IMG/VR virus record: IMGVR_UViG_3300034631_000070 | Span: 1 to 53,186 of that record | Source of the DNA: a virus | Reading direction: 5' to 3' (one strand) | DNA length: 53,186 nucleotides | Shown: piece after piece, positions 37,083 through 50,367 of the stretch | Layout of the letters: each line of letters opens with the position of its first letter | Position numbering within the stretch: position 1 is the first letter of the stretch | The notes under the pieces: generated by a model | Told to the model about the DNA's origin: nothing | The model's input: only the letters and a program-made list of their open reading frames with translations | Databases searched by the model: none | Position numbers and translations under genes: made by a program

Positions 37083-37088
37083 AGTCAA
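37060..37088 (-). promoter_or_regulatory. Early promoter (sigma-70 type)
   Basis: On the minus strand TTGACT (37088-37083) and TATGAT (37065-37060) are separated by exactly 17 bases. This is a near-consensus promoter pointing at the transposase operon. The opposite-strand TATACT at 37091-37096 could serve the repressor. Confidence 0.8.
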
Positions 37089-37131
37089 GTTATACTGAAG
37101 CCAAGCAAGAAGAAATGCAGTAGGCAAGCCA

Positions 37132-37824: not shown

Positions 37825-38569
37825 TAGGTTGCCGCTCTTTGCAGTAGCAAATGTAGACTAACAGGTTGAGATCCTCAACTTGAGTGATTTCTATATCGGC
37901 GTTGTAGAGCCTCTCTTCAGCCCTACATAGTAAATCCCGCGTAGGATCGACGGTATAGGAGCGGTATTCGTAATCACGAAGGATTGTTCGTTGTCCTTCC
38001 GGCGCTGTAGAAATCTCTTTCATCAAGGCTTCATGCCGCTTCTCAAATTCGGGACGATCGAAAAGCAGTGTCACGTCGTCACCGTGCCATCGGGGCGCGA
38101 TTCGTCCCGAAAAATCCGTAACTTGGGAACTGGTCAGGATGCAGCGCTGAGGCTGTCCCCAGTGCCAATTGTGCGGAATCTCGACAAAATAAGCTGGATA
38201 GTCCGAGTTCAGGGCTATGCGTAATAAGTCAGCATACTTGCAACTGTTTGCTGTTGTTGTTGGTAAGATCATATTGGGTTGCACCCCCTCATAGATTGAA
38301 GGAGAGGAAACCGAGCCAAAAAGGAATCCTCTCCTTTTAAATATTAATCTTCCAGTCAAGCCCAATAAAGTAGCGCTATCTAAGATGAAGTGGCGTTGTT
38401 CCCAAAGTTTGTCTAGGTTGCTAGTTTGAGAGCAATCTACGATGAGCGCCACTTCTCCATCTTCTTGTTGCTCTCTCCAGATATCACAAAACTCCAGAAG
38501 CTCCTGACATTCGCTCAGAGAAATCAAGTTTTTAATCGCTTGCAAAGTTAGGGCTGATTGGCTCATCAT
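37817..38569 (-). CDS. Hypothetical protein convergent with the repressor
   Basis: This protein of about 250 residues starts at the ATG at 38569. The frame stays open upstream only because a GTTCCAA heptamer repeat, in units totalling a multiple of 3, encodes E-L-G-T-W-N-L-E-L-G-T-K-K-Q type repeats; I treat those as non-coding. Residues 1-70 include V-A-L-I-V-D-C-S-Q-T. The body shows R-L-I-F-K-R-R-G-F-L-F-G and Y-F-V-E-I-P-H-N-W-H-W-G. I do not recognise a family. Its 3' end overlaps the repressor stop on the opposite strand by 8 bases. Confidence 0.6.
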   Translation of the reverse strand: MMSQSALTLQAIKNLISLSECQELLEFCDIWREQQEDGEVALIVDCSQTSNLDKLWEQRHFILDSATLLGLTGRLIFKRRGFLFGSVSSPSIYEGVQPNMILPTTTANSCKYADLLRIALNSDYPAYFVEIPHNWHWGQPQRCILTSSQVTDFSGRIAPRWHGDDVTLLFDRPEFEKRHEALMKEISTAPEGQRTILRDYEYRSYTVDPTRDLLCRAEERLYNADIEITQVEDLNLLVYICYCKERQPIT

Positions 38570-38761
38570 TTTTAGTTCCAAGTTCCAAGTTCCAAGTTCT
38601 TGTTTTTTAGTTCCAAGTTCCAAGTTCCAAGTTCCAAGTTCTTGTTTTTTAGTTCCAAGTTCCAAGTTCCAAGTTCCAAGTTCTTGTTTTTTAGTTCCAA
38701 GTTCCAAGTTCAGTTCCAGGTTCTTGTTTTTTAGTTCCAAGTTCAGTTCCAGGTTCTTGTT
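38570..38761. repeat. GTTCCAA heptamer tandem repeat array
   Basis: The heptamer GTTCCAA (minus strand TTGGAAC) is repeated in runs of two to four, separated by GTTCTTGTTTTTTA, in about 190 bases. Short tandemly repeated heptamers are a known feature of cyanobacterial genomes. It lies just upstream of the gene at 37817-38569 and ends before the promoter of the plus-strand genes. Confidence 0.85.
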
Positions 38762-38855
38762 GCAACTACTTTCTATTTATTGCTTTACTCTGCGAAAAAA
38801 TCCAGATCCACTGGTACCATTACTACACTAAACTCTAGAATAATTTTCTATCTAC

Positions 38856-39068
38856 ATGAATAATCCAAAATCAAAACCACCTCAAAACAATGCCCAAAAT
38901 CAAGTAGTTACAGAACTAGCGGCAATGCGTCAGGAGTTACAGGAGATTAGGAAAGAAGTCTCTATATTAAGAAAAAACCTGACCAGCTCTGTAGCTTCAG
39001 GAGTTGTCTTAGGCTTCTTAATTATTGCTGGTATTGGTTTAGTTCTCCAGCTTCTCCTAAATCGATAA
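38856..39068 (+). CDS. Small single-span membrane protein
   Basis: This 70-residue protein has a charged N-terminus, a short coiled coil at 20-42 (M-R-Q-E-L-Q-E-I-R-K-E-V) and a membrane helix at about 47-67. No family recognised. Its position beside the repeat block and next to a lysis-type cassette is noted. It could be a small regulator of lysis or exclusion, but this is speculation. Confidence 0.5.
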   Translation: MNNPKSKPPQNNAQNQVVTELAAMRQELQEIRKEVSILRKNLTSSVASGVVLGFLIIAGIGLVLQLLLNR

Positions 39069-39098
39069 AATTTAAAATAAGTTCACTAAGTTGTAGTG

Positions 39099-39614
39099 AT
39101 GAACTACGAAGACTTATTTCTGTGGCGCAGTATTTGTGAGCTTTTAGTTGAGAAAAAGGGTTTCGCCGATCCAGACGAAATTCTTTCTGCTGTGCCTGGT
39201 GCTGTCCATCTTATTAGTTTCGATCGCACTCACCGCCAAGCGCTCTGGGATGCTTACAAAATCCAGTTGATTATCTGGGATAATCACCCTCGCAGATACC
39301 AATACCAGGGCTGGAATCTCAAAGGTAACTGGGAATTTAAGATAGATTTTCTGGAGCAAATCTACATCTTTGGCAAAGACCCAGACTTCTTACCTAAGAT
39401 TTGGCTAGAGAAGTGGCAGCGCAAGCAAGAACAAAAGCGCCAGAAAGAAGCCGAAAGAGAAGAGAGGTGGCGACAGTACCACATCAAACGACAGGAAGAA
39501 CAAAACGAGCGTATGCGACAGAGGGTTAAGGAAAACCGCTGCCCTCATTGCGGCATTCCTCAAATCGCTCTGATGCTCGATTGTCTAAACTGCGGCAAAG
39601 CCTACCAAATCTAA
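39099..39614 (+). CDS. Hypothetical protein with a C-terminal zinc ribbon
   Basis: This 171-residue protein (ATG at 39099; the frame also opens with GTG at 39096) has an N-terminal domain of about 100 residues rich in W, a long basic helix (about 110-150, R-Q-K-E-A-E-R-E-E) and a final C-P-H-C ... C-L-N-C zinc ribbon. It lies convergent to the holin-like gene, with a 4-base overlap of the 3' ends. Nucleic-acid binding is plausible. Confidence 0.55.
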   Translation: MNYEDLFLWRSICELLVEKKGFADPDEILSAVPGAVHLISFDRTHRQALWDAYKIQLIIWDNHPRRYQYQGWNLKGNWEFKIDFLEQIYIFGKDPDFLPKIWLEKWQRKQEQKRQKEAEREERWRQYHIKRQEEQNERMRQRVKENRCPHCGIPQIALMLDCLNCGKAYQI

Positions 39615-39940
39615 TACTCCTCTTCCCAAAACTCCTCATCAACAGCTTTAGGAAAGTTCGATTGATTTAGAGGCGCTGATTGAATTCTCGCCTTCTGCTT
39701 TGCATTGCTGCGATTCAAACCCAGCACACCTGGCGGCGTATAAACCACCGTGTCATTAGCATTGAGTCGTCCAATCGCGTTCCCGATCGCCGACGACACC
39801 GCCACAATCAATCCCACTGTCATTGACGCTGACAGCTTCTCCCCCGCCTCAACTTCTTGAACGTAGGGATAGACCGCCGCTGAAACCAAAGACACTAGCG
39901 ACCAAAAGGAAGAGGTAGAAAAGTAATTTTTTACTTGCAT
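39611..39940 (-). CDS. Holin-like membrane protein
   Basis: This 109-residue protein has two hydrophobic stretches (about 11-27 and 41-60) joined by an acidic loop V-Q-E-V-E-A-G-E-K, then a soluble tail. It overlaps the endolysin stop by 1 base, the usual holin-endolysin pairing. A role in making the membrane pore for lysis is inferred. Confidence 0.55.
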   Translation of the reverse strand: MQVKNYFSTSSFWSLVSLVSAAVYPYVQEVEAGEKLSASMTVGLIVAVSSAIGNAIGRLNANDTVVYTPPGVLGLNRSNAKQKARIQSAPLNQSNFPKAVDEEFWEEEY

Positions 39941-41160
39941 CAGGAGTACTTAATTTCTAAAGGAATAGTGTCGATACCAGCCGACTTCGCCTTGTTCAGC
40001 AGCGGTACGACCAAGGAATCAAATGAGTGCCGATTCTGAACAACAATGCAGCCAGCACTGCCAGGAACGTTGCCATCAAAGTGCAAGCCAATGTCGCTAC
40101 GTCCGTACTCCCGCATTAGGAACGGCAAGATGGGGTAAAACATTCCCTCTACTCCCTTTTTTGGGATGTAGATGCCGTTGGTGCTGATCTGTAGATTCTT
40201 TGCTGGGGGGCAAGGGCCGCGACCGCGACTAGAGAAATTCGATGCACTCTGATAACCGGAAGCACCACTGGTAACAACGACCCTTAAAAGCTGCTGCCCC
40301 GACTCGTTATAGAAGGTGAGATTGCCTAGCAATAACTGAGGCGATCGCCCCAGCTTCATCTCAAACACCGCTAACTTCGGCAAATCCGATGGAGGCGTGA
40401 AGATACTCAAAGGGCGTATAGGGGCATCTCGCCAGCGCTTGGCAAACTCTTCTAAAATCTCACTGTTGGTTTGCGACTGGAGCCATTGCAATGCCGCAGT
40501 CTGGTGAGGTAGATCTTGAAAATATTGAGCTGCCTGGGTCAGTTGAATTGATGCGTTACTATCAAATTTCTGCGGTGAGGTTTCTTCGGGAGCCTCTTTT
40601 AATAGCCACCATATAACAGCCGCTGCGCCTACCTGTTCAGAGCAAGCGTGTTGGTCAAATCGACCATCAGCAACGAATTTGCCTTGCTGATACCAATTTG
40701 TACTACTCCACAAATAAGGAGTAAAAATCTTTTTAGTCCGATATCCAAACCCGTTGTAAAGCTCCAAACGCCAGAGCTGTGCAGCGATATCCCACTGTTG
40801 TGCCTTTTGATGATTCTGCATCATCAAGGCGTCTACGGCAGATTCCTCGAAGCTGTAGCTTATCCCGTTATTGGGAGGCGCGGTTGGTCTCCCCGCAGGC
40901 ACTCTCACAGTCCGACTCTTTAGGGAATCCCCATTGTGAAGATGTGCCTCAGCAAAGCTAGATTCTAGGCTATGTATGATTCCTGGAAAGTACCAGGGCA
41001 TGAGCGGGTTTACCGCCTTCGCAATCTGCTCGTAGCGCTCCCTTCCTTCCTGAATCCTGGTGCAAGTCGATTGGATTCGCCCGATCCAGTTAGAGCGGAT
41101 TTTGATCTCCGCAAACATCTGCTCATATTCCGGACGCAATTCACCCAGTCTGTAAGACAT
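39940..41160 (-). CDS. Lysozyme-like and L,D-transpeptidase-like fusion
   Basis: This 406-residue protein has an N-terminal phage lysozyme-type domain (about 1-200): E66 lies in I-I-H-S-L-E-S-S-F, with H-L-H-N-G-D-S-L, V-P-A-G-R-P and Y-N-G-F-G-Y. The C-terminal 150 residues match an L,D-transpeptidase fold of the Tlde1/DUF2778 type: H360 in L-H-F-D-G-N and C371 in G-S-A-G-C-I. The first domain cuts glycan; the second would edit or cut peptide cross-links. There is no N-terminal signal peptide. It pairs with the holin-like gene and is the most likely endolysin, while the second domain may toughen or modify the wall. Confidence 0.65.
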   Translation of the reverse strand: MSYRLGELRPEYEQMFAEIKIRSNWIGRIQSTCTRIQEGRERYEQIAKAVNPLMPWYFPGIIHSLESSFAEAHLHNGDSLKSRTVRVPAGRPTAPPNNGISYSFEESAVDALMMQNHQKAQQWDIAAQLWRLELYNGFGYRTKKIFTPYLWSSTNWYQQGKFVADGRFDQHACSEQVGAAAVIWWLLKEAPEETSPQKFDSNASIQLTQAAQYFQDLPHQTAALQWLQSQTNSEILEEFAKRWRDAPIRPLSIFTPPSDLPKLAVFEMKLGRSPQLLLGNLTFYNESGQQLLRVVVTSGASGYQSASNFSSRGRGPCPPAKNLQISTNGIYIPKKGVEGMFYPILPFLMREYGRSDIGLHFDGNVPGSAGCIVVQNRHSFDSLVVPLLNKAKSAGIDTIPLEIKYS

Positions 41161-41303
41161 TTATAGAATGAGAATGCAGTTCTTCCCCTCAATCAAACTC
41201 CACAAACCTAGAAATTTTCAGTCTGCGTTTTCTAAATAAGTCTGTCTAAAGGCATACGCCTAAAGAGGGAATAAAATAGAAGTTATCTATCTCCCATCTT
41301 CCT

Positions 41304-41522
41304 ATGCCACCAAAAGCGATCCAGCCAGGACTGCTGGTAGTCCCCAGTCTTCTCAATTTCACCCTGATTCCTGTGCCAGGAAGCCTAACGTCCTACAGAG
41401 TTGTAGAAGCTGACGAGAAGGTGCTATTGATCCAGCAAGTCCATGTATCTTATTTCAGGTCTTCCTCTGATCATTGGCGAGAAGAAAAAAGTATCTTCGG
41501 ACTATCCGAAGATACTGCCTGA
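41304..41522 (+). CDS. Hypothetical small protein
   Basis: This 72-residue protein lies in an otherwise minus-strand region. Its last residues are encoded by the CTTCGG palindrome at 41495. No Shine-Dalgarno site and no family are seen, so it may not be a real gene. Confidence 0.35.
   Translation: MPPKAIQPGLLVVPSLLNFTLIPVPGSLTSYRVVEADEKVLLIQQVHVSYFRSSSDHWREEKSIFGLSEDTA
41495..41511. repeat. CTTCGG-N5-CCGAAG palindrome, copy 4
   Basis: The palindrome is extended by GTAT and ATAC at its two sides, giving an 11-bp stem with a 3-base loop. It ends just before the stop of the small plus-strand gene. Confidence 0.75.
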
Positions 41523-41558
41523 ATACCAAGATCTGGAAGTAGACTAACCAACAGCTCA

Positions 41559-41744
41559 ATGACCAAACGAGTGCAATGGTATGGGTGCCCCTATTGCACC
41601 AGCAGAGATTACATCTCCAGGAAAACTGACGAAATAGATTGTATCCGAATCAGTTTTAAATGTAATGCTTGCCACAAGGAATTTTTCACAGAGCCGTTGC
41701 TGTTTTGGCTTGAAAAACCGCAGTATGACCAAACACAGAATTAA
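41559..41744 (+). CDS. Small zinc-ribbon protein
   Basis: This 61-residue protein has C-P-Y-C near residue 10 and C-N-A-C near residue 35, a two-pair zinc ribbon. Such proteins are common in phage and mobile DNA. It may bind nucleic acid. Confidence 0.55.
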   Translation: MTKRVQWYGCPYCTSRDYISRKTDEIDCIRISFKCNACHKEFFTEPLLFWLEKPQYDQTQN

Positions 41745-41814
41745 AAGACATTTGTATCTAGAAAGTCACTGGGGAACATAAACCGAACCTCCCTTTGATT
41801 TGATGTGTGGAAGG

Positions 41815-42228
41815 TTACTTCTTATCTAATAGCAAGTGACACCACGCACTTAACTCTAATCCCGCGCCTATAGCGGCAATTTGCGCTGCCTTAACTTCTG
41901 GTAAGGGGATAATTCCCAGTACCCAGAAGGGAAAAAGCACGATCATGAAGTATCCCACACGCCCAAGGGTGCCGAGAAGGACGCTGTGTGAAAGCCGGGA
42001 GCGGTGAGGGACAATTTTTTGATAGGGAATCCACAAAAATTTCAAATAGCCCCAACGAAGAAAGGGGCGGCTGTGGATATCTAAATCGGGAGAAAGCCAC
42101 AGTCCACCTATCAGGTAAGAGATGCCAACTACGATTCCTAATTGGAGTGTTGTCGTTGCCGCTACAGCCCCAGCAACAACCGGACAAGATAGCAAAATAG
42201 CGCGGTCGTGAATGACGCCAGAACTCAT
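41815..42228 (-). CDS. DUF2227 putative metal-binding membrane protein
   Basis: This 137-residue protein matches DUF2227, a cyanobacterial family: start S-S-G-V-I-H-D-R-A, middle S-P-D-L-D-I-H-S, then H-R-S-R-L-S-H-S. Conserved H and D residues likely bind metal. Several hydrophobic stretches suggest membrane association. It is a rare family for a phage and may have been picked up from a host. Confidence 0.7.
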   Translation of the reverse strand: MSSGVIHDRAILLSCPVVAGAVAATTTLQLGIVVGISYLIGGLWLSPDLDIHSRPFLRWGYLKFLWIPYQKIVPHRSRLSHSVLLGTLGRVGYFMIVLFPFWVLGIIPLPEVKAAQIAAIGAGLELSAWCHLLLDKK

Positions 42229-42246
42229 AGATGGTTTAAAAGTTGA

Positions 42247-42900
42247 CTAAGGTTTACGGTCTGTTGGTGGCAGAAAACGACTGACCTTTGCCGCCGCTTC
42301 TTTCGCAGTAACCACGCCATCTCGATCGCTGTCTAGCCCAGCGTTCTGCCGATAGGCAATCGTTCCCCTAGTGAAGAGGCGATAGTTCCCACCGTTGCCG
42401 ACAGCAGCAGGGTAGAGGACAGCCATATAAGTATCGATTAGGGTGTTAAGCTGCCCCTTAAACGGGCGTAGATATCGCTCTACATAATCAAGCTGCTCAA
42501 TTCGGCTCATTCGCGCAAGGGCAGCAGTTGAAGTTCCCAAGCCCCTTGCCGTAGCAGGCATGAACTGAATCAATCCGGTGGCATCAGAGCCTGCTAAGTT
42601 TTTTTTGCTAGGGCTAAAGGAGCCGCCACTCTCAAAATGCATGACTGCAAATAGATATTCAGGTTTGGTTCCCAGGCGATGAGCGATCGCTTGGGTCTTT
42701 TCAACAAATTCCGTATCCGAAGAGATCGCAGAAGGCAAGGTATAGGTTGCCTCTTGGTAAGACTGAGGAATTAAAGAGAATCGTTTCAATACGTTGTGCA
42801 ACGAGTTGAGGGCGATCGCTCCCACTAACCCCAGTAAGATCAAATCGCCCAAATAGTCAGGTGAGGAGTTAGAGCGCCTAGCCCATTGTTTTAGGCTCAT
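42247..42900 (-). CDS. Membrane-anchored lytic transglycosylase with EF-hand
   Basis: This 217-residue protein has a membrane helix at about 19-37, then an SLT-type lytic transglycosylase domain with catalytic E90 (M-H-F-E-S-G-G-S-F) and G-L-I-Q-F-M-P-A-T. A canonical EF-hand loop lies at 190-201 (D-S-D-R-D-G-V-V-T-A-K-E) near the C-terminus. It cuts cell-wall glycan from the periplasm side. It overlaps the preceding gene by 4 bases. The EF-hand suggests calcium control. Confidence 0.8.
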   Translation of the reverse strand: MSLKQWARRSNSSPDYLGDLILLGLVGAIALNSLHNVLKRFSLIPQSYQEATYTLPSAISSDTEFVEKTQAIAHRLGTKPEYLFAVMHFESGGSFSPSKKNLAGSDATGLIQFMPATARGLGTSTAALARMSRIEQLDYVERYLRPFKGQLNTLIDTYMAVLYPAAVGNGGNYRLFTRGTIAYRQNAGLDSDRDGVVTAKEAAAKVSRFLPPTDRKP

Positions 42901-43145
42901 TGCGTATCTTCCATGTATGAGACAAACTCTTCGTCAATGGCATCCCAATCCGGGACACTGTTTTCATCCTGACCCTGCCACTCTGGATGTGCGTGCCATA
43001 TCAGGCGCACAATTCTTAAATTTTCTGGGGAGTAACCCAAGTCCCCCACCATTTCAGGAAACTCGTAATGATGCACCCCTTCAGAGTCTGTATATACCTC
43101 ACAAAAGCCAGTAGACAAAACGGCTTCAACTTCTTTGCTTATCAT
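42897..43145 (-). CDS. Small acidic hypothetical protein
   Basis: This 82-residue acidic protein lies between the M23-type gene and the transglycosylase, overlapping both by 4 bases. No membrane helix or family is seen. Confidence 0.45.
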   Translation of the reverse strand: MISKEVEAVLSTGFCEVYTDSEGVHHYEFPEMVGDLGYSPENLRIVRLIWHAHPEWQGQDENSVPDWDAIDEEFVSYMEDTQ

Positions 43146-43861
43146 TGACCTTTCCTCACAAAAGCAAAGTAATTTTCAATCAGTGGCGCGGTGTGGGCAC
43201 GATCGGTAATCCTTGCCCCCCAGTTGTCGCCTTGGATTTTGTGAATCTGAGCGTGGACATGATCACCATTACTGCGTCCAGTTGATCCTTGAATCCCCAT
43301 CGCGTGACCCTTAAGCACCTGGTCGCCCTCTCTGACTAAAGGCTTCTCCATGTGAGCTATAAGCCAGCCGTAATCTTTGCCTTCGCAGGCAACCTGCACT
43401 ATTTGTCCTGCCCCTCTGCCCGTTGTTAAGTTGCCACTGACACCTTGAAACCAAACTCGGTTAACAACCCCTGTGCAGGGACTGGGAATCTCTACAGAAG
43501 TTGAACCATTGCGGCTTAGGGTAAAGTCCCAGCTACCAGGGGGAGAGTTATCGATTAGAAATGGGGTAGCCACTTTTAAAGCTTCAAAAGAGGTTGTTTT
43601 AGCCAGTGACGATCCAGTTTCGCTGGTCATTAGCTTGGGCAGTAACTGCGGCGGCGCAGGTACTGGTAAACGAAGTTTGAACGCCAAGACAATTAGCAAA
43701 ACAACTGCGATAAATCCCTTCAGACTACCGACTTCTTCTTGAGCATGGTGACGGGCGATCGCGCTAATCGCTTCCTCCAGCGTCTTCTCCGAAGGAAACC
43801 CATTGGGGTAGTCCCGCCGAAGCTGCTCAATTATCTCCTCACTCGTTATTCGGCGGGGCAT
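43142..43861 (-). CDS. Membrane-anchored M23-type peptidase-like protein
   Basis: From the ATG at 43861 (GGAGG site 7 bases before; the frame opens earlier at 43936) this protein of 239 residues has a cytoplasmic start, a membrane helix at about 50-70 and an M23 fold. It shows G-W-L-I-A-H, G-R-S-N-G-D-H-V-H-A-Q and other M23 residues. The first Zn ligand of typical M23 enzymes (H before D) is not obvious, so it may be inactive. It would act at the wall beside the transglycosylase. Confidence 0.6.
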   Translation of the reverse strand: MPRRITSEEIIEQLRRDYPNGFPSEKTLEEAISAIARHHAQEEVGSLKGFIAVVLLIVLAFKLRLPVPAPPQLLPKLMTSETGSSLAKTTSFEALKVATPFLIDNSPPGSWDFTLSRNGSTSVEIPSPCTGVVNRVWFQGVSGNLTTGRGAGQIVQVACEGKDYGWLIAHMEKPLVREGDQVLKGHAMGIQGSTGRSNGDHVHAQIHKIQGDNWGARITDRAHTAPLIENYFAFVRKGQ

Positions 43862-44217
43862 GGAACATCCTCCATCTTTAAAGTCCCGCCCAAATCCTTT
43901 GCGGTTTTGGCTAGCGAGGTCTGGTAAGTTTTGCAATCAATTTTTGTCTGCTCTGCTTCACTGGTGCCAGCAGACAACGGAATCACGCGACCGTGAGGAG
44001 TTTTAGGGGCGGGACGATCTAGCCCCTTATCGTTGCTGAGGTAGGGTGAATCAGGAATAGCCTCTATTGATTGATAAATCCTCTGCGCTGTGGCTTTGGC
44101 TTCATCAATTCCTTTGAGCATTCCTACCATCTTTGTCAAAGACGGGAGTATGTTTGTCCAGACCAAGAAGCAAAATACTCCAAAGCAAGCCGAAAGGTTC
44201 CAAATCGTCCGCCCCAT
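43846..44217 (-). CDS. Single-span membrane protein
   Basis: This 123-residue protein begins with ATG 44217, behind AGGAGG, and has a membrane helix at about 8-30. The C-terminal part has two cysteines (about residues 94 and 120) that could form a disulphide. It is coupled to the M23-type gene. No family recognised. Confidence 0.5.
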   Translation of the reverse strand: MGRTIWNLSACFGVFCFLVWTNILPSLTKMVGMLKGIDEAKATAQRIYQSIEAIPDSPYLSNDKGLDRPAPKTPHGRVIPLSAGTSEAEQTKIDCKTYQTSLAKTAKDLGGTLKMEDVPCPAE

Positions 44218-44226
44218 CAAATCCTC

Positions 44227-44673
44227 CTAGAGTTCGTCAAGGGTGACAATGCCATCGCCGTTACGGTCTTGGCTGACCACGCCGCCACCGTTAATCTGGG
44301 CAGAGCGCAAGGACGCACTGACCGGATTGACGCTACTCTCAAAAGAGCGCACAGGCTGTACGCTCCCCTGACCAATCGAGTTAACTGAGCTAGGTAGTGT
44401 AGGTAGAGGAACCTCAAATCGAAGCTTCCCACCTGTACCAGAATCAAGGCTGCTAGCATCTTTTCCATTGCGAAAAGCTGGAAAAGTTCCCATGATGAAC
44501 TCGTGCAATCCTCCGGAGATTGCCGCACCAGCATTCCGCCCCACATCCTGTGGGCGTGATACATCTCCGTCAGGCTTGAGGCTGCGAGTAATCAGTCCAC
44601 CCGCAAATTGGCCACCACCGTAAATAACTATTGCGGTTCCTAAAAGTAATCCAGCAATTCCTTTTCCGTCCAT
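44227..44673 (-). CDS. Membrane protein with C-terminal EF-hand
   Basis: This 148-residue protein has an N-terminal membrane helix (about 4-24), then a low-complexity middle, and ends with a canonical EF-hand loop, D-R-N-G-D-G-I-V-T-L-D-E, almost at its last residue. The EF-hand resembles that in the transglycosylase gene. It overlaps the ATPase stop by 1 base. Function is unknown; calcium-dependent assembly with the ATPase and transglycosylase is inferred. Confidence 0.55.
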   Translation of the reverse strand: MDGKGIAGLLLGTAIVIYGGGQFAGGLITRSLKPDGDVSRPQDVGRNAGAAISGGLHEFIMGTFPAFRNGKDASSLDSGTGGKLRFEVPLPTLPSSVNSIGQGSVQPVRSFESSVNPVSASLRSAQINGGGVVSQDRNGDGIVTLDEL

Positions 44674-46103
44674 TACTCTTCATCCTTTTCTAGTCGTTGT
44701 TTTGCGATCTCAACAGCATTCCTCCAGGCGTCCGCGACAAACCTTGCATACCTAGGCGATCGCGGGCCATAAGGAACACCGAAGCCCTGACAGACTTCCT
44801 CTTTCAGCGGCGATTTTATCTCCCCTGCCACGAAGCGGTAGGCAAGGGTTTCAAGCCACTGTTTCTTTTCAGAAGTCCAAATACTTTTCCACCAAGCTAG
44901 GTCTGCATCTTGGGGCTGCTTGGTTTTGATTTCCCAGGTAGGAGCCATTGAAAGATCTGGAATGACTTGAATGGTTGCTCCCCTGCCCGGAATTTGAACA
45001 CAGGCGACTCTTACTTTCTGCTTGAGTAAGGTTCCTGCTTCTTGGGCAAGTTCCTTGGCTTTGCTCTTAGAGAGCCTGAGCAACGCATCCGAGTCTGCTG
45101 CATCATCTCCACAGATCGCTAGAGCCATATTGCGCCGTGTATCCTCGCTGATGTCCGCTTCGCCAACTGCTAGGGCTTGTCCAGAGAGCAAGAACTTCCA
45201 TCCATAGCCAGCGGATTCGTAAAGGAATTTGGCTAACAATCGGCTAAACTCGCCGTCCTTTCCTTTCCCGCCATTACAAGCTTTGGCGGTGGAGTTGAGT
45301 TCGTCGATCAAAATAATGCGCTTGGGCTTGTTAATCCCCAGCTCTTTGCGTCTTTCTAGCTCCTCGTCTTCTGCTAAGAAGGCTGCCATGATATCTTCCG
45401 GCTTGCGCTGCACGTAGCTGCGAGGCAGGCGCATCCAGTCGTTCTTCCGGCCTGTTACTGGGTCAGGTTTGAGATAGTGAATATCCCAAATCCGAAGTTC
45501 CACGTTTGAATCTGCTTTGAGAATTTCTTTCAAAATCCAGAGCATCAAAAAGGTTTTTCCTGCTCTTGTACGCCCCGCGATCCAGGCGTGAGGCGCTTTG
45601 AGAAATTCCTTAAGCCAAGTTACAGCAAGGGTCTTTTTCTCCAGAGCCGTTTTTACCTGGGCTGGTGCAGTGTTAAGCCAGACAACCTCAGCGGTTTTCT
45701 TTCCTCTCAGAACAGCCCAAGACAGACCGCCAGCGATCGCCGTCCCCAGCGACTCGTTAAAGATTTGCCCCGTGATGATTGCTGTTTCTGCAAAGTCTTT
45801 TCTAAAGGCATCAGGGCGCAAATCAATTAGGGCATTGCCTGCACCATCGTCGGCGCTGAGGATTAACCCAGCCATAAGAATAGAGCTACCCATCATAATC
45901 AGGTAAAATTCCCGGTTCCGGATGGGGTTTTTACCATGATCAATCTGGTAGCCAGCCTGAGCCTGATTGAGGTACGGATGAAATCCGCCGATGTAGCTTT
46001 CACTTTTGAGCGAAACTCCCCAAAACGTCACAGCGCTAGCTATAGAAGCAACAAAGCCAAGAATGGCGAGGTGCTTTGCTTGGTATCTATTTGGGTAAGC
46101 CAT
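44673..46103 (-). CDS. FtsK/TraB-like membrane ATPase
   Basis: This 476-residue protein has two membrane helices (about 11-31 and 65-83) and a P-loop ATPase: Walker A G177-R-T-R-A-G-K-T184 and Walker B R-I-I-L-I-D-E at 262-268. It fits the FtsK/HerA group that pumps DNA through a membrane. The C-terminal 60 residues are helical and could be a small DNA-binding part. It overlaps its neighbours and lies in a run with the wall-cutting and membrane genes. A single ATPase of this kind without a relaxase recalls TraB-type dsDNA transfer of actinomycetes. That role is inferred. Confidence 0.65.
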   Translation of the reverse strand: MAYPNRYQAKHLAILGFVASIASAVTFWGVSLKSESYIGGFHPYLNQAQAGYQIDHGKNPIRNREFYLIMMGSSILMAGLILSADDGAGNALIDLRPDAFRKDFAETAIITGQIFNESLGTAIAGGLSWAVLRGKKTAEVVWLNTAPAQVKTALEKKTLAVTWLKEFLKAPHAWIAGRTRAGKTFLMLWILKEILKADSNVELRIWDIHYLKPDPVTGRKNDWMRLPRSYVQRKPEDIMAAFLAEDEELERRKELGINKPKRIILIDELNSTAKACNGGKGKDGEFSRLLAKFLYESAGYGWKFLLSGQALAVGEADISEDTRRNMALAICGDDAADSDALLRLSKSKAKELAQEAGTLLKQKVRVACVQIPGRGATIQVIPDLSMAPTWEIKTKQPQDADLAWWKSIWTSEKKQWLETLAYRFVAGEIKSPLKEEVCQGFGVPYGPRSPRYARFVADAWRNAVEIAKQRLEKDEE

Positions 46104-47112
46104 TGTCTTTTTCTTCCGGCTTAGGTGAGGCAGAAGGTTGTGGAGGTACAGCCTCAGAATCAGAAATGCCCAGCTCTCTCAACTTTTGCTCGTGAGTGCG
46201 GCGTCGGACAACTGCACCAAGCCGCCACATATCAGCCATGTGTCGATTCAACTCGGCTGGGCGGATAGTCTCCTGGACTACGTTATTAGCGGATGGGCGC
46301 GACGGCAACGGACGAAGAGCAACCCCAGAGCGCTCCATTGCTTTGATTAAGTCATAGGATGAGGGGCAGGCATACTCGCTGCTGGCGCATACAGCCTCAA
46401 TAGCCATTGCTGCCTGTTCCTCTATTTCAGGATTGTTATTAGGAATTTCAACATCCCAGATGATCCGCAGGGCATCTAGCACAGCGAAACTATCAGCGAG
46501 TAGCGGCAGAAGAGTTTTCTGATGAGCAGCAGTGCCGCTAAATTCACCAGAGTTGATCAGCAGTTTTTGCTGTTCTTGAACTTGCCGATACACTTCTCTC
46601 AGCAAAGTAATATCTCTGGGAATGCTATTTCCTTCCAGCTCTTTCTGAGACTTGCTCAACATAAAAGCCCTACGGGCATTCTTAGCATTGTCTACCAAGC
46701 TCTCTGTTTCTAGAAGTGCCAGTCCCAGCGCTTCGTCCCTAGCTTGAGTAGTAGCGTCGATTTGTAATGAGGGAATTTCAATTTCAGCAGGGGAAGTAGA
46801 AGGAGTAGGAGTCGGCTGCTGAGTTTGAGGCTCTTGAACTTGAACGTTTTGGAGCTGCTTAACTTCCCGCTGAGGGCGGTTAAGCAGAATGCTGCTGACA
46901 ATCCCCAATCCCGCAAGTCCTACTAGTACAGTGAAAATTCGACGGCGATTAACGTCTTTCGCCTTCAGTGCTGAATCTACAAGTTCTTTGTGTTGAGAAG
47001 TAACGTCAACGGGTTCTTGTTCTTCTGGTTGAGGTTTTCCATTACTTTGAGCAGAAACCTCTTCCTCTTCCTGCGGCTCCCAAATTTCAAATCCTTCAAA
47101 CCCTCCCATCAT
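46087..47112 (-). CDS. Bitopic membrane protein with proline-rich spacer
   Basis: This 341-residue protein has an acidic cytoplasmic N-terminus, one membrane helix at about 56-74, a proline/threonine-rich spacer (about 90-115) and a helical domain at 120-330 with two cysteines. The layout recalls VirB10 and similar scaffolds, but the beta-barrel of that family is absent. It overlaps the ATPase start by 17 bases. It may link an inner-membrane motor to the wall. Confidence 0.5.
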   Translation of the reverse strand: MMGGFEGFEIWEPQEEEEVSAQSNGKPQPEEQEPVDVTSQHKELVDSALKAKDVNRRRIFTVLVGLAGLGIVSSILLNRPQREVKQLQNVQVQEPQTQQPTPTPSTSPAEIEIPSLQIDATTQARDEALGLALLETESLVDNAKNARRAFMLSKSQKELEGNSIPRDITLLREVYRQVQEQQKLLINSGEFSGTAAHQKTLLPLLADSFAVLDALRIIWDVEIPNNNPEIEEQAAMAIEAVCASSEYACPSSYDLIKAMERSGVALRPLPSRPSANNVVQETIRPAELNRHMADMWRLGAVVRRRTHEQKLRELGISDSEAVPPQPSASPKPEEKDNGLPK

Positions 47113-47151
47113 GGCAAAAGCCTCGGTTGCAAATAGCGGTTGTTTGGTTGC

Positions 47152-47184
47152 AGGCTCAACATGGAAAAATCAGTGGTTGAGCCT
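47152..47184. repeat. Intercistronic hairpin AGGCTCAAC/GTTGAGCCT
   Basis: A 9-bp inverted repeat with a 15-base loop lies in the 91-base gap between two cargo genes. No T-run follows the hairpin. Confidence 0.6.
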
Positions 47185-47203
47185 GGTTGCTGGTTGTTAG
47201 ATG

Positions 47204-47539
47204 CTACGAACCCAGGCGATTCTGGCCCGATAGCGCTGCGTAGGCTTCCGAAAGCCTTGCTGCTTGCTCTGGCTCTATTTCAGAGCGCTGAAGTTGCATC
47301 AAGATAGCTTCCTCTGGGGTTGTTGGAATCTTCCGCTTTCCCAGAAACTCAGCCACCAGCAGGGTAGCGGCGGAAGCTAATCCAGCCCCCGTTCCTATTT
47401 GGTAGGCGATCGCCATCATTCGCTCTTCGGAAACAGACTTTTCCAATGCAGGCAAGACTAGGAGCTGCATCGCAACAGCACTGCCTACAACTCCCGTCGC
47501 TGCTACACCTAATGCTTTTACTAAGAGGTTCACGAACAT
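47204..47539 (-). CDS. Two-span small membrane protein
   Basis: This 111-residue protein has hydrophobic stretches at about 8-32 and 44-66 and then an acidic soluble tail. It is the second gene of the cargo operon. No family recognised. It may be a pore or scaffold subunit of the same complex. Confidence 0.5.
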   Translation of the reverse strand: MFVNLLVKALGVAATGVVGSAVAMQLLVLPALEKSVSEERMMAIAYQIGTGAGLASAATLLVAEFLGKRKIPTTPEEAILMQLQRSEIEPEQAARLSEAYAALSGQNRLGS

Positions 47540-47553
47540 TCTCCTTTGGAGTT

Positions 47554-48114
47554 CTAGGCAGTTGCAGAGGAGGGTGCCTTCTCTGAAGCCGCGCCCTCTA
47601 GCGTCCTCGCATCGGTCGAGAAACCATCTAGTAAGTTTCCCTCGTCATACCCAAGGATGTTTCCTAGCAGGCACGCTTCCACGAGTCGCTCTGATTGACG
47701 GACTTTTTCCTTGACTTCTGGGGAGTGAAAATTCCCCGTTGCCAGATATTGGGCAGTGCGGACGTTTTTGGTGATAACTAGTCCTGCCGCCTGTTTCTCA
47801 GCACTGCGATCGATTAGTGCAAGCTGATCTTGCCGCATTTCCTCGGCAGTCTTGGCACCTTCCTCATTGATTTTTTCCGTATAAGCCTGCGTCTTAGAAT
47901 TTGCCGTGACAGCCCGTTCTCCGGCACGGTAACGTTTAATTGCTTCACCTGGCTCTCTAATACTTTGGGCAGTCATTAAGGAATCGATCTCATCAATCTC
48001 TTTACACTGGTTTTTTGTGAACGGCTCAGAGGCTCCAATACCCTCTGCGATTGCCTTTCCACGAGCCTTAGAAACAACCTTTTTACCTTGAAACAGTTGA
48101 GCAATCGTCGTCAT
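47554..48114 (-). CDS. Hypothetical cargo-operon protein
   Basis: From the ATG at 48114, which has a GAGGA site 7 bases before it, this protein of 186 residues is helical and rich in A, E, K and R. No membrane helix or motif is seen. It probably leads the membrane-complex operon. The frame opens earlier at 48150, inside the preceding gene. Confidence 0.5.
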   Translation of the reverse strand: MTTIAQLFQGKKVVSKARGKAIAEGIGASEPFTKNQCKEIDEIDSLMTAQSIREPGEAIKRYRAGERAVTANSKTQAYTEKINEEGAKTAEEMRQDQLALIDRSAEKQAAGLVITKNVRTAQYLATGNFHSPEVKEKVRQSERLVEACLLGNILGYDEGNLLDGFSTDARTLEGAASEKAPSSATA

Positions 48115-48379
48115 AGCTTTCCTCGGTGAAATTATATTTATTGCCGCCACACCTAAGGTGCAGCGCGTACTTGAGCAGTTTTTTGTATTCAGAAAGGGAA
48201 AAGAAATCAGCGTTTGAAGAGATTTCTAAACAGTCGCACCATCGCCAAAAAGTGGATTGGTTGACTGTCCTTTGTGATACTCCCCACCGTTTGAGTGAAA
48301 TGTCGGCAATCACTTTCTTCTTGGGGACTTGTGTTTGGATACCATGCATCTTGCATTCAAATTTCCATGCACCTTGCAT
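48083..48379 (-). CDS. HTH-like regulator of the cargo operon
   Basis: This frame (98 residues from ATG 48379, or about 88 from ATG 48349) has a basic N-terminus and I-S-L-K-R-W-G-V-S-Q-R-T-V, a helix-turn-helix-like stretch. It overlaps the start of the next cargo gene by 32 bases. Two palindromic operator-like boxes lie at its start. A self-regulating role is inferred. Confidence 0.45.
   Translation of the reverse strand: MQGAWKFECKMHGIQTQVPKKKVIADISLKRWGVSQRTVNQSTFWRWCDCLEISSNADFFSLSEYKKLLKYALHLRCGGNKYNFTEESYDDDCSTVSR
48342..48379. promoter_or_regulatory. Two ATGCA-N3-TGCAT operator-like boxes
   Basis: On the minus strand ATGCAAGGTGCATGG (48379-48365) and ATGCAAGATGCATGG (48356-48342) are palindrome-like and 23 bases apart. 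They overlap the possible starts of the HTH-like gene. This looks like an operator pair two helical turns apart. Confidence 0.6.
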
Positions 48380-48395
48380 AGAGGCTTGTAAACAT

Positions 48396-48422
48396 TAAAA
48401 AGCCCCTCAAGTTGAGGGGCTA
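48396..48422 (-). terminator. Rho-independent terminator
   Basis: On the minus strand AGCCCCTCAACTTGAGGGGCT folds into a perfect stem and is followed by TTTTT. It ends transcription from the gene at 48457-48654. Confidence 0.88.
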
Positions 48423-48456
48423 GGTGCAAGAGCGGTAGTATTGTCCACTTCAGCCG

Positions 48457-48654
48457 TTAGTCTTCTTCATGATCGTTCACCAGAAATGTGTTGTCATTTT
48501 TGCTGAAAACTAATTCCTGTTTAAATTCGACAACATAGACCCTTGTTAGTTCGTACTTTTCAGCTCTGTCATCAAATAGGCAGTTAACTGTTTGAACTTC
48601 TTTTCTGCCTGAGTTGCAATAGTGGATAGTCCCAGTGATAGTTCTAATTTTCAT
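48457..48654 (-). CDS. Hypothetical small beta-rich protein
   Basis: From ATG 48654 (the frame also opens with TTG at 48678, overlapping the preceding gene) this 65-residue protein has alternating strands such as R-T-I-T-G-T-I-H-Y-C. No family recognised. It is co-transcribed with the HTH gene before it. Confidence 0.45.
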   Translation of the reverse strand: MKIRTITGTIHYCNSGRKEVQTVNCLFDDRAEKYELTRVYVVEFKQELVFSKNDNTFLVNDHEED

Positions 48655-48670
48655 AGGTGTTAGTTCCACT

Positions 48671-48886
48671 TCAAGCAACTTGGCTTTCTGTCTCTGCTTT
48701 TTTTTCGCGCTCCCACTTTTCGTCCAGGAGCTGGCAGGTACGCTGTACCAGATCGGATGGATGCCTAAATTTCTTAGCTGTAGAGCGGAAGCCCCAAGCT
48801 CTCACCGTTGCCTCAGTGAGATGCAGTTCATTTGCTAGCTGAGTATATGACAAGTTCCACTTTCTTAAGAGAGCGATCGGGTGCAT
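48671..48886 (-). CDS. Small HTH protein
   Basis: This 71-residue protein has L-S-Y-T-Q-L-A-N-E-L-H-L-T-E-A-T-V-R-A-W-G, a standard helix-turn-helix. I prefer ATG 48886 over the TTG at 48892; an AAAGGAGG site lies 10 bases before the ATG. It is divergent from a plus-strand ribbon-helix-helix gene across an operator region. A switch role is inferred. Confidence 0.65.
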   Translation of the reverse strand: MHPIALLRKWNLSYTQLANELHLTEATVRAWGFRSTAKKFRHPSDLVQRTCQLLDEKWEREKKAETESQVA

Positions 48887-48983
48887 AATCAAATTGCCTC
48901 CTTTGGGGGTAAGCGATCGCTTGCGATATCTGGTGGATGGAGCGGCGATCGCTTTTGCTTGTAGTTTACTCCCAAATGGGAAA

Positions 48984-49016
48984 ATGGGAAAATTACCACT
49001 AGAGGAATTTTCCCAT
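48984..49016. promoter_or_regulatory. ATGGGAAAATT inverted repeat in a divergent promoter region
   Basis: ATGGGAAAATT (48984-48994) and AATTTTCCCAT (49006-49016) form a perfect 11-base inverted repeat with an 11-base spacer. A further GGGAAAA copy lies just to the left. The block is in the 148-base gap between the HTH and ribbon-helix-helix genes and is a good operator candidate. Confidence 0.7.
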
Positions 49017-49034
49017 CAATGCCAAAATTAGGGC

Positions 49035-49340
49035 ATGGAAGATACTGAAGAAATCAAACTAAAGATAAACCCTGCTCTAAAACAACGTTTTCAAATTAAG
49101 TGTGCAGAACGGCGCACTAAGATGAGTCCAGTCTTGCGAGACTTCATTCAGTCTTGGTGCGAGGCTGATTCTAACGAAAGTACCTCATCCAATCTGGCGG
49201 CTGAATTCCTCAAAAAAGTAGCAGCGGGAGAAACTCCAGATAATCGCGAATTTGTAGCCTTAGCCGCTGAGTTGGGTATAAGTACAAGAGAGCTAATGAA
49301 AATAAAGAAATCCGAAAACGGAGTGAAAAATGGGATCTAA
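49035..49340 (+). CDS. Ribbon-helix-helix protein
   Basis: This 101-residue protein reads as an Arc/CopG-like DNA-binding unit in the first 40 residues (I-K-L-K-I-N-P-A-L-K-Q-R-F then a helix with S-P-V-L-R-D-F-I). A second helical half follows, with L-A-A-E-L-G-I-S-T-R-E-L. It likely binds the nearby inverted repeat. Its stop overlaps the next gene by 11 bases. Confidence 0.6.
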   Translation: MEDTEEIKLKINPALKQRFQIKCAERRTKMSPVLRDFIQSWCEADSNESTSSNLAAEFLKKVAAGETPDNREFVALAAELGISTRELMKIKKSENGVKNGI

Positions 49341-49995
49341 TCTTCTTTGGCAGACAATTCGCCATACAGACTGGAAAGTCTCCGTCGATTTTCAGTCCCG
49401 GACTCTCAAGATATCTAACCTCAAAAATCCTAAAGAGCATCAACAGCTTTTAGATAAGCACCTTGAGGAAATTGCCTTGTGGGCTTATCGAGTAGGTTGC
49501 CAGCAAGCGTTGATAGGGAATTATCTAGAGATTCCGGTAGAGATGGTTACTACGTCAACCAATGAGGCTGAAGGTGATCGCGTCATCGTTCAACCGGAAC
49601 GCACTTTGATATCTTCCCCCAGGTCTCGCACAGAAGAATTAGAGATTGAGGCAAAGTCCGCTCCCAATCCCGTAGGTTTTGCAAGCCTACGGAATGGCAA
49701 GATCCTCTACATGAATCCCAAAATGCCTTCCTTCACAGGTTTGCCCTTTGATGAGATCGCACCGCCCGATATTAGAGAGCAGTTCCAGTCACGCTCAGGC
49801 TTGCAGCCCGACGACCTGGACGCCTTCAACTCGCGACTAGAACAAGACGGCGTAATCAACGGCTTCCTAACCGCCTTCCGCACCAACGGCGACTTCGGGC
49901 GATTCTGGGGAAAGTTCAGCAAAGAAATTTACAACGGCGTCCCCATCAGAAGATCCGAGTATCACCACTTCGAGCTACTCCAAGCCTGCTGCTAA
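49330..49995 (+). CDS. Protein with a PAS-like domain
   Basis: The C-terminal half of this 221-residue protein (about 115-220) has a PAS-like pattern: N-P-V-G-F-A-S-L-R-N-G-K-I-L-Y-M-N-P-K, then F-G-R-F-W-G-K-F. The N-terminal part has a helical segment that could be a DNA-binding unit. It is coupled to the ribbon-helix-helix gene and ends before a terminator. A sensor for the cargo switch is inferred. Confidence 0.5.
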   Translation: MGSNLLWQTIRHTDWKVSVDFQSRTLKISNLKNPKEHQQLLDKHLEEIALWAYRVGCQQALIGNYLEIPVEMVTTSTNEAEGDRVIVQPERTLISSPRSRTEELEIEAKSAPNPVGFASLRNGKILYMNPKMPSFTGLPFDEIAPPDIREQFQSRSGLQPDDLDAFNSRLEQDGVINGFLTAFRTNGDFGRFWGKFSKEIYNGVPIRRSEYHHFELLQACC

Positions 49996-50023
49996 CGAAA
50001 CAAATAAGCCTGAATATCACTAG

Positions 50024-50060
50024 AAGGTCTAGGTAGCGTTAAACTACCCAGACCTTTTTA
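50024..50060 (+). terminator. Rho-independent terminator
   Basis: AAGGTCTAGGTAG, loop CGTTAAA, CTACCCAGACCT forms a stem with one mismatch and is followed by TTTTT. It ends the plus-strand pair at 49035-49995. Confidence 0.85.
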
Positions 50061-50063
50061 GCA

Positions 50064-50333
50064 ATGTTAAACCCAAGCAAATCGTCCATACTGACCGACC
50101 ACCTTGCAAATTGGATCGCAGCGATCGCGACAGCGGCAACCTTAACGACACTCGCGACAGTCAGCAACACAAACAATCAAGTAGCCCGGTTAGAAGAACA
50201 GAATAAAGCTATCAAAGAGCAGCTCAATAAAATCGAAGTCGCAGTGGAGCGACAATCTGCTACGCAAACTTCGAGCGCACAACTAATAAGTCAACTACAA
50301 ATAAAAGTCGAGTCACTAGAAAATAGAAGGTAG
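50064..50333 (+). CDS. Small membrane/coiled-coil protein
   Basis: This 89-residue protein has a hydrophobic helix at about 15-35 and a coiled coil at 38-87 (V-A-R-L-E-E-Q-N-K-A-I-K-E-Q-L). It is the last gene before the phage end. No ribosome site is obvious. Function unknown. Confidence 0.45.
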   Translation: MLNPSKSSILTDHLANWIAAIATAATLTTLATVSNTNNQVARLEEQNKAIKEQLNKIEVAVERQSATQTSSAQLISQLQIKVESLENRR

Positions 50334-50367
50334 CTTATTGCAAAATATACTCAGTAAGAATAGGCTG

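What the first reader, a model, noticed from the sequence alone, without database searches (positions are those of the whole stretch)
39611..48114. Candidate envelope-crossing module: FtsK/TraB-like ATPase, transglycosylase, M23-like and bitopic proteins
Genes in one orientation with tight overlaps include a membrane ATPase of FtsK/TraB type, a membrane-bound lytic transglycosylase, an M23-like protein, a bitopic proline-rich protein, two small membrane proteins and a lysozyme-transpeptidase fusion. No relaxase, VirB4, or tail gene is present. The simplest idea is a minimal double-strand DNA transfer or secretion system, similar in principle to TraB; alternatives are a lysis or superinfection-exclusion system.
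Basis: inference. Interest (0 to 1): 0.85.

Follow-up and report, generated by a model that had tools for sequence, protein, structure and literature searches.

The report
Envelope-crossing ATPase module in Mu-like prophage
A cyanobacterial transposing virus lying dormant in its host's chromosome carries a block of genes, shared with other cyanobacterial viruses and plasmids, that looks like a small ATP-driven machine for moving something, most likely DNA, through the cell wall; it lacks the signature part of the known DNA-transfer systems, so it may be an unrecognised way for mobile DNA to move.

Summary
The module (window 41815-48150) lies inside a 52.9-kb Mu-like transposable prophage that splits a host phospholipase-D gene. 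One end of the element is at window 50518; the other lies about 2.4 kb left of the window. Terminase, head and tail genes fill the rest. The endolysin-type fusion plus holin-like gene (39611-41160) is a separate lysis-type cassette.

The ATPase is an FtsK/HerA-superfamily motor with two N-terminal transmembrane helices, closest in fold to FtsK and the conjugation protein TcpA. Its neighbours are conserved with it: small membrane protein, bitopic protein, ATPase, small bitopic proteins, anchored peptidase, anchored glycan hydrolase. This order recurs on Oscillatoria/Laspinema plasmids and in phage PaV-LD. Very divergent versions occur in two other Mu-like prophages and on Calothrix and Leptolyngbya plasmids. 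Plasmid copies are under strong purifying selection. No VirB4 was found in 12 genomes carrying such modules, although some plasmid copies share their replicon with a relaxase.

Best explanation: a VirB4-less trans-envelope translocase of mobile elements, most likely moving DNA (TraB/TcpA-like). This is inferred, with no functional proof. Main rivals are lysis and protein secretion.

The parts
1..50518 (.). Part of the Mu-like transposable prophage inside the window; the whole element is contig C29:90607-143480, about 52.9 kb, its other end about 2.4 kb left of the window
   Evidence: Empty-site join restores an intact PLD ORF; 49-bp flanking direct repeat; matching terminal repeats TGTACGGTGACAC.. 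/ TGTAGGGCGACAC..
50363..50518 (-). Module-side transposon end with three transposase-type repeats (window 50369, 50402, 50493)
   Evidence: Motif scan: such sites only at the two element ends, none at 37-39 kb
34590..36821 (-). MuA-type transposase (context)
   Evidence: phrog_310 1e-112; Mu-transpos_C, rve, HTH_Tnp_Mu_1
33812..34519 (-). MuB/TniB-type transposition ATPase (context)
   Evidence: phrog_296 5.8e-44; TniB
37132..37824 (+). Putative prophage repressor (context)
   Evidence: phrog_4779 and other transcription-regulation families
47554..48150 (-). Cytosolic protein at the head of the array, 198 aa (ATG at 48114 gives 186 aa)
   Evidence: ORF; a cytosolic gene is at this position in PaV-LD, L020 and L082, but no sequence homology detected
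47204..47539 (-). Small membrane protein, 111 aa, conserved module member
   Evidence: Iterated HMM finds homologues in the plasmid modules and L020; PaV-LD, L034 and L017 by position and alignment
46087..47112 (-). Bitopic protein, cytosolic N-terminus, TM about 59-77, Pro-rich then helical periplasmic part; overlaps the ATPase gene
   Evidence: Homologues at the same position in plasmids, PaV-LD, L020, L026, L034; AF2 pLDDT 42, not usable
44673..46103 (-). FtsK/HerA-superfamily ATPase, 476 aa, two N-terminal TM helices; Walker A AGRTRAGKT, Walker B ILIDE
44227..44673 (-). Small bitopic protein, 148 aa, with an EF-hand-like DRNGDGIVTLDEL tail
   Evidence: TM 6-24; conserved by position only, no detectable sequence homology
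43846..44220 (-). Small bitopic protein, 124 aa; positional counterpart of the 83-aa plasmid protein and PaV-LD ORF124/125
   Evidence: TM 11-29; conserved by position only
43142..43861 (-). Membrane-anchored M23-like protein (TTG at 43936 possible); HxGxD replaced by STSVEIPSPC
   Evidence: PF01551 1.3e-10; alignment A5
42897..43145 (-). 82-aa acidic ORF between M23 and SLT, overlapping both by 4 bp
42247..42900 (-). Membrane-anchored SLT-family lytic transglycosylase
   Evidence: PF01464 above cut-off; phrog_4928 2.6e-50; same position in L017
41815..42228 (-). DUF2227 membrane protein, also next to the module in prophage L083
   Evidence: PF09988 7.1e-37; 52% over 52 aa to the L083 protein, PF09988 8.2e-36
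39940..41160 (-). Endolysin-type fusion (N-terminal lysozyme-like by inspection, C-terminal weak Tlde1/L,D-transpeptidase-like); prophage lysis-type cassette, not the ATPase module
   Evidence: 654 bp from DUF2227; weak Tlde1 match; weak C-terminal match to the L081 288-aa protein
39611..39940 (-). Holin-like small membrane protein, 109 aa, lysis-type cassette
   Evidence: Homologue of the 105-aa protein in module-less L081, E 1e-9

Best explanation
The module encodes a compact, VirB4-less trans-envelope translocation machine carried by cyanobacterial mobile elements (Mu-like prophages, the phage PaV-LD, plasmids). A membrane-anchored FtsK/TcpA-like hexameric ATPase at the inner membrane, coupled to the overlapping bitopic protein, pumps the substrate. 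The small membrane and bitopic proteins form or gate the conduit. A paired anchored peptidase-fold protein and an anchored glycan hydrolase open or license the peptidoglycan locally. The most likely substrate is the element's own DNA, moved cell to cell as in Streptomyces TraB/Spd or clostridial TcpA systems; the carriers identified by name are filamentous cyanobacteria. Shown here: gene content, synteny, motor fold, selection, absence of detectable VirB4, and location inside a Mu-like prophage. Inferred: hexamer and channel formation, DNA as substrate, cell-to-cell transfer.
For: ATPase motor domain matches FtsK (Z 18.1), then TcpA of conjugative plasmid pCW3 (Z 17.6), EccC/EssC (about 15), HerA (about 14), VirB4 (13.6). 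Gene order conserved on pOSCIL6304.01/.02, Laspinema contigs and PaV-LD. The same architecture with barely related ATPases occurs in Mu-like prophages L082 and L083, plasmids L094 and L095 and contig L062; subfamilies II and III each include both a prophage and a plasmid. The hydrolase slots are filled by different enzymes: M23, NlpC/P60, SLT, GH108, GH73, which argues for a needed wall-opening function rather than a linked gene. Purifying selection on plasmid ATPase and bitopic genes, omega about 0.03-0.1. No VirB4 in 12 genomes by PF19044 and 10 by PF03135, while PF19044 rings in 11 of 120 genomes of the order. A PF03432 relaxase shares the replicon with the module in G450:C2 (pOSCIL6304.02), G505:C78 and G484:C73.
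Against: No experiment shows transfer. No outer-membrane component or pilin was recognised. The host genome has no PF03432 relaxase, so transfer by the prophage would have to be relaxase-independent. The bitopic model is unusable and the ATPase tail gave no DNA-binding family. PaV-LD ORF123/124, in the same slots, are reported as a lysis pair, inhibitory when expressed (PMC9096620). The closest PDB match by sequence profile is a T7SS ATPase, not a DNA motor. The small bitopic genes are equated by position only. The three relaxase-bearing replicons come from one genus cluster.
Confidence: 0.48

Rival explanations
1. Lysis or virion-egress cassette: the anchored hydrolases and small membrane proteins act as endolysin, holin and spanin, with the ATPase energising or timing release.
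For: PaV-LD ORF123 (M23) and ORF124 (1 TM) are reported to inhibit growth and damage E. coli and Synechocystis cells (PMC9096620). They occupy module slots. The PaV-LD record names no other lysis gene.
Against: The same syntenic module is maintained by purifying selection on plasmids whose annotation shows no virion genes. In the window a separate lysis-type cassette exists, and a module-less Mu-like relative has only that. Lysis cassettes do not normally contain an FtsK-type motor. Over-expressing an anchored hydrolase or bitopic protein may be toxic whatever its native role.
Confidence: 0.2
2. Protein-secretion or effector-delivery system of T7SS-like kind, the ATPase being an EccC/EssC analogue.
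For: Best sequence-profile match in the PDB is EssC/EccC (1.7e-8). A bitopic protein plus a 2-TM FtsK ATPase plus small bitopic proteins resembles the EssB/EssC/EssA set (from general knowledge).
Against: A single motor domain rather than several in tandem. Fold comparison puts FtsK and TcpA above EccC/EssC. Paired wall hydrolases are not a T7SS hallmark. No effector or WXG100 gene was noticed near the module, but this was not searched with a model.
Confidence: 0.13
3. Superinfection exclusion, entry exclusion or defence at the envelope, expressed from the prophage or plasmid.
For: Location beyond the repressor, a typical place for lysogenic-conversion genes. Found only on elements that reside in cells. 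One weak PADLOC hit, mad8, 2.8e-6 over the P-loop.
Against: The PADLOC hit is P-loop only and no other module gene matches. Paired wall hydrolases fit opening the wall better than blocking entry.
Confidence: 0.1
4. Membrane-anchored segregation or DNA-clearing device (FtsK-like pump moving the element across the septum at division), not transfer between cells.
For: ParM/StbA genes lie just upstream in Oscillatoria/Laspinema plasmids; FtsK-like motor.
Against: Integrated prophages carrying the module would not need it. Wall hydrolases and small bitopic proteins are not expected. ParM is missing next to the prophage and PaV-LD copies.
Confidence: 0.06

Closest known systems
Streptomyces TraB/Spd dsDNA transfer system
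   Same: FtsK-type membrane motor with small membrane partners, no VirB4, carried by mobile elements of multicellular bacteria (PMC12857230)
   Different: [quoted passage not shown] Here there is a bitopic partner overlapping the ATPase gene, several small bitopic proteins and two wall hydrolases in a Gram-negative envelope. No clt repeats were sought and no C-terminal DNA-binding domain was detected.
TcpA-type coupling proteins and Gram-positive minimal T4SS (pCW3 tcp locus, ICEBs1)
   Same: Motor fold nearly as close as FtsK (Z 17.6); module of small membrane proteins plus wall hydrolases, including fused peptidase-glycosidase proteins (CwlT-like by analogy, from general knowledge)
   Different: Those systems have VirB4, VirB6 and VirB8 homologues and a relaxase (general knowledge). 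No VirB4 was found here, and the window genome lacks a PF03432 relaxase.
MPF_C cyanobacterial T4SS (pCC7120alpha)
   Same: Trans-envelope DNA transfer in cyanobacteria
   Different: MPF_C has a VirB4 (alr7206), VirD4 and relaxase (PMC8600333, PMC3158045); no VirB4 detected here. Not compared sequence by sequence because the plasmid record was not held.
Type VII secretion ATPases EccC/EssC
   Same: FtsK superfamily, TM-anchored, bitopic partners; best PDB profile hit
   Different: Single motor domain; paired wall hydrolases; no substrate gene noticed
PaV-LD 'endopeptidase/holin' lysis module (ORF123/124)
   Same: Same slots as the M23 and small bitopic genes here
   Different: The published lysis reading (PMC9096620) does not mention FtsK, ORF127 or ORF122 and predates the comparison with plasmid copies made here
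Mu-like transposable phages
   Same: The carrier: MuA, MuB, Mor, terminase, head and tail genes in Mu order
   Different: About 13 kb of extra region beyond the repressor, with ATPase module and lysis-type cassette; 49-bp flanking repeat in place of the usual 5 bp

Membership tests
Type IV secretion system / conjugation | VirB4 ATPase (signature subunit of all T4SSs, PMC12857230) | tested here: not met
   PF19044 0 of 12 genomes, PF03135 0 of 10; PF19044 does ring in 11 of 120 genomes of the order, mostly below its cut-off, so a very divergent VirB4 could be missed
Type IV secretion system / conjugation | Relaxase linked to the system | tested here: inconclusive
   PF03432 on the same replicon in G450:C2, G505:C78, G484:C73; absent in G000 and several others. 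PF01076 found nothing but its control also failed.
FtsK/SpoIIIE/HerA motor superfamily | Walker A/B and RecA-like motor fold | tested here: met
   Conserved motifs; Z 18.1 to FtsK over 208 residues, rmsd 2.5; Foldseek E about 1e-5
FtsK/SpoIIIE/HerA motor superfamily | Pfam FtsK_SpoIIIE above cut-off | tested here: not met
   Only sub-threshold hits in relatives; membership rests on fold and motifs
TraB-type dsDNA transfer | Membrane-anchored FtsK-like motor with membrane partner genes, no VirB4 | tested here: met
   Two N-terminal TM helices, overlapping bitopic gene; no VirB4
TraB-type dsDNA transfer | C-terminal DNA-binding domain recognising 8-bp clt repeats | tested here: inconclusive
   C-terminal 75 residues modelled as helices at high pLDDT but no convincing family or PDB match for the tails tested; clt repeats not searched
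TraB-type dsDNA transfer | Demonstrated dsDNA transfer between cells | not testable with these tools
   Needs a mating experiment
TcpA family coupling proteins | TcpA-like motor fold | tested here: met
   Z 17.6 over 210 residues, tied with FtsK
Type VII secretion | EccC/EssC family model above cut-off | tested here: not met
   TIGR03925 13.9 bits against cut-off 346.55
Phage lysis cassette | Present only in elements that make virions | tested here: not met
   Intact, selected modules on plasmids whose annotation shows no virion genes
Phage packaging ATPase | Sole packaging motor of the virus | tested here: not met
   Separate terminase in the prophage and PaV-LD
M23 metallopeptidase (window protein) | HxGxD plus HxH zinc motifs | tested here: not met
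   HxGxD replaced by STSVEIPSPC, HxH kept; the same in L004, L024, L025; canonical in L017, L003, PaV-LD
Mu-like transposable phage (the carrier) | MuA, MuB, Mor, terminase, head and tape-measure genes in Mu order with matching ends | tested here: met
Mu-like transposable phage (the carrier) | 5-bp target duplication | tested here: not met
   49-bp perfect direct repeat at the ends; none found in prophage L082

The most novel reading that the evidence does not exclude
A widespread, previously unnamed class of relaxase- and VirB4-independent transfer machine by which prophages and plasmids of filamentous cyanobacteria move as double-stranded DNA from cell to cell through the septal envelope: a Gram-negative counterpart of Streptomyces TraB that is also used by temperate phages.
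Probability: 0.25. Interest if true: 0.92.

Novelty: new variant of a known kind. Interest (0 to 1): 0.74.

Why it matters
Most cyanobacterial plasmids lack a recognisable T4SS: 374 of 424 (88%) were called likely immobile, and an unknown conjugation mechanism has been suggested (PMC8600333). A VirB4-less FtsK/TcpA-type module with paired wall hydrolases, shared by plasmids, a tailed phage and three lineages of Mu-like prophages, is a concrete candidate. It also joins phage and plasmid biology, since the same machine serves both kinds of element, and it questions the published lysis reading of the PaV-LD ORF123/124 pair. If it moves DNA it would extend FtsK-type transfer beyond actinobacteria and give new leads for transforming filamentous cyanobacteria.

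Tried and rejected
Tailless double-jelly-roll virus or corticovirus-like packaging module: rejected, since the element has its own terminase and head and tail genes. Filamentous-phage Zot/pI export: not supported (no Zot match; different topology). Separate integrative element next to a Mu prophage: rejected, since transposon end sites occur only at the outer ends and none lies between repressor and module, and in prophages L082 and L083 the module also lies inside the element's end repeats. Bitopic structure prediction: pLDDT 42, discarded. Sequence search of the bitopic family against the PDB: one chance-level hit. C-terminal DNA-binding domain of the ATPase: no convincing match. Scan of viral contigs with the window ATPase alone: nothing; with A1, three PaV-LD-like contigs; with subfamilies II and III, none. 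MOBV/Mob_Pre search uninformative because its control failed. pCC7120alpha was not in the collection. Nostocales CyRepA1/DUF3854 plasmids carry a longer ATPase (596-720 aa), often near ParM, but no adjacent wall hydrolases; related in kind, not counted as the same module. No TraB chain appeared among the listed structure matches; that is no evidence against it.
Full report
Setting. The window is G000:C29:92963-146148 of a 5.09-Mb cyanobacterial genome. Genes 1-36821 on the - strand are a Mu-like phage: MuA (34590-36821, phrog_310 1e-112, Mu-transpos_C), MuB/TniB (33812-34519), a Mor activator (27882-28295), terminase small and large subunits, a minor head protein, a major head protein (Phage_cap_E) and a tape-measure protein. 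A repressor-like gene (37132-37824) points the other way.

The module is inside that prophage. The host phospholipase-D gene is cut at window 50519 and at C29:90606, left of the window. Joining the flanks restores one intact ORF. The two copies of the target share a perfect 49-bp repeat. The inner ends are TGTACGGTGACACATAGATTGATTAA and TGTAGGGCGACACTTACATTGATTAA. Transposase-type repeats occur twice at one end and three times at the other and nowhere between, in particular not at 37-39 kb where an ordinary Mu left end would lie. The element is therefore about 52.9 kb. Pseudoalteromonas Mu-like phage HS6, which matches this MuA, is 35.3 kb.

Anatomy. In transcription order: 198-aa cytosolic protein, 111-aa membrane protein, 341-aa bitopic protein, 476-aa ATPase (its gene overlaps the bitopic gene by 17 bp), 148-aa and 124-aa small bitopic proteins, M23-like anchored protein, 82-aa protein, SLT lytic transglycosylase and DUF2227 protein, with gaps from -17 to 91 bp. 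After a 654-bp gap come the lysozyme/transpeptidase-like fusion and the 109-aa protein. The closest MuA relative inspected (L081, 47% identity) lacks the ATPase module. It has a 288-aa protein with a weakly similar C-terminus and homologues of the 109-aa and 89-aa proteins, so I read 39611-41160 as a separate lysis-type cassette.

The ATPase. Conserved motifs are GxxxxGKT/S, DINYGKPD, hhhhDEL and RGY..LLL.GQxLAVG. A profile of 10 relatives finds EssC/EccC (1.7e-8), FtsK, HerA and TcpA in the PDB. The AlphaFold model (mean pLDDT 73, most of the motor 75-90) aligns to FtsK at Z 18.1, TcpA 17.6, EccC/EssC about 15, HerA about 14 and VirB4 13.6. The motor class is secure. FtsK and TcpA are tied, and fold alone does not fix the substrate.

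Conservation. Relatives were found in 9 of 391 genomes of the order, in two Oscillatoria acuminata plasmids, in phage PaV-LD and in three IMG/VR contigs. In these the 111-aa, bitopic, ATPase, small bitopic and M23 genes keep their order. Exceptions: L019 is interrupted by transposases and L022 (chromosomal) has lost M23. M23 is followed by SLT in the window and L017. It is fused to GH108 in the Oscillatoria/Laspinema plasmids and to a different lysozyme-like domain in L020. PaV-LD has GH108 as the next gene. The small bitopic genes match only by position and topology.

Divergent versions. Searching for MuA rather than the ATPase exposed two other Mu-like prophages with the same architecture beyond the repressor: L083 (bitopic, 2-TM ATPase, two bitopics, anchored M23, anchored muramidase-like protein, DUF2227) and L082 (bitopic, ATPase, bitopic, M23, GH73). 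In both, repeat-bearing element ends lie outside the module. Their ATPases have relatives on a Leptolyngbya boryana plasmid (L095, 27%, 1e-19) and a Calothrix plasmid (L094, 38%, 1e-58) with the same order. An 11.5-kb contig (L062) carries a version with an NlpC/P60-GH108 fusion. Subfamilies I, II and III thus each occur in prophages or phages and on plasmids.

Function maintained. Among Oscillatoria/Laspinema copies, dN/dS is about 0.03-0.1 for ATPase and bitopic genes, and 0.08-0.36 for PaV-LD-like phages.

What it lacks. VirB4 was not detected in 12 genomes with PF19044 or in 10 with PF03135; PF19044 finds matches in 11 of 120 genomes of the order. PF03432 relaxases share the replicon with the module in G450:C2 (pOSCIL6304.02), G505:C78 and G484:C73 but are absent from the host of the window.

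Mechanism. An FtsK/TcpA-like motor, a bitopic partner, small membrane proteins and a peptidase-fold plus glycosidase pair are what an ATP-driven trans-envelope conduit needs. Elements as different as plasmids, a tailed phage and transposing prophages share mainly an interest in moving their DNA. VirB4 is the signature of all described T4SSs; TraB moves dsDNA without one, helped by Spd membrane proteins; and TcpA resembles FtsK enough that dsDNA transfer has been proposed (PMC12857230). I therefore favour DNA translocation (0.48). This remains inference: no outer-membrane part, no demonstrated DNA-binding domain and no experiment. The lysis reading has published support from over-expression of PaV-LD ORF123/124 (PMC9096620) but does not explain the ATPase or the plasmid copies.

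Novelty. In the papers searched I found no description of this module, but the library is partial. It is filed as a new variant of FtsK-type translocation rather than a new category because function is untested.

Noticed in passing
window 50519-50567 and L016:17596-17644: The prophage is flanked by a perfect 49-bp direct repeat, whereas Mu and Tn7-type transposases normally duplicate 5 bp; the ends (TGT..GACA with repeated sites) look Tn7/CAST-like. No such repeat was found at prophage L082.
   Followed up: partly
window 43142-43861; L004, L024, L025: A subfamily of module M23 proteins lacks HxGxD (STSVxIPSPC instead). L003 and L025 have ATPases 96% identical but M23-GH108 proteins only 62% identical, suggesting domain replacement.
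   Followed up: partly
L002:8407-10525 (PaV-LD ORF122-126): The pair published as PaV-LD holin and endopeptidase sits in a larger conserved module with an FtsK-like ATPase and a GH108 protein, so the lysis assignment deserves retesting.
   Followed up: partly
L092, L093, L096, L097, L098, L099: Many Nostocales/Oscillatoria plasmids with CyRepA1/DUF3854 replication proteins carry, often next to ParM, a longer membrane ATPase (596-720 aa) preceded by a roughly 180-aa protein with 2-3 predicted TM helices in those read, several with MOBP relaxase and MobC.
   Followed up: partly
L020:7744-9018: A gene that looks like an IscB-type nuclease (by eye only) lies between the small membrane gene and the bitopic gene of the Spirulina module.
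   Followed up: no
window 38570-38740: Run of heptamer-like TTCCAAG repeats between the repressor region and the module, read through by an ORF as NLELGTKKQE repeats; similar repeats sit near the repressor in L082.
   Followed up: no
L022:10022-12000 (G495 chromosome): A chromosomal copy of the module appears to be decaying: ATPase intact, M23 gene lost.
   Followed up: no
L083:11659-12354 and L095:12092-13465: A DUF2927 domain recurs with the module, free-standing in L083 and fused to M23 in L095 (43% identity).
   Followed up: partly
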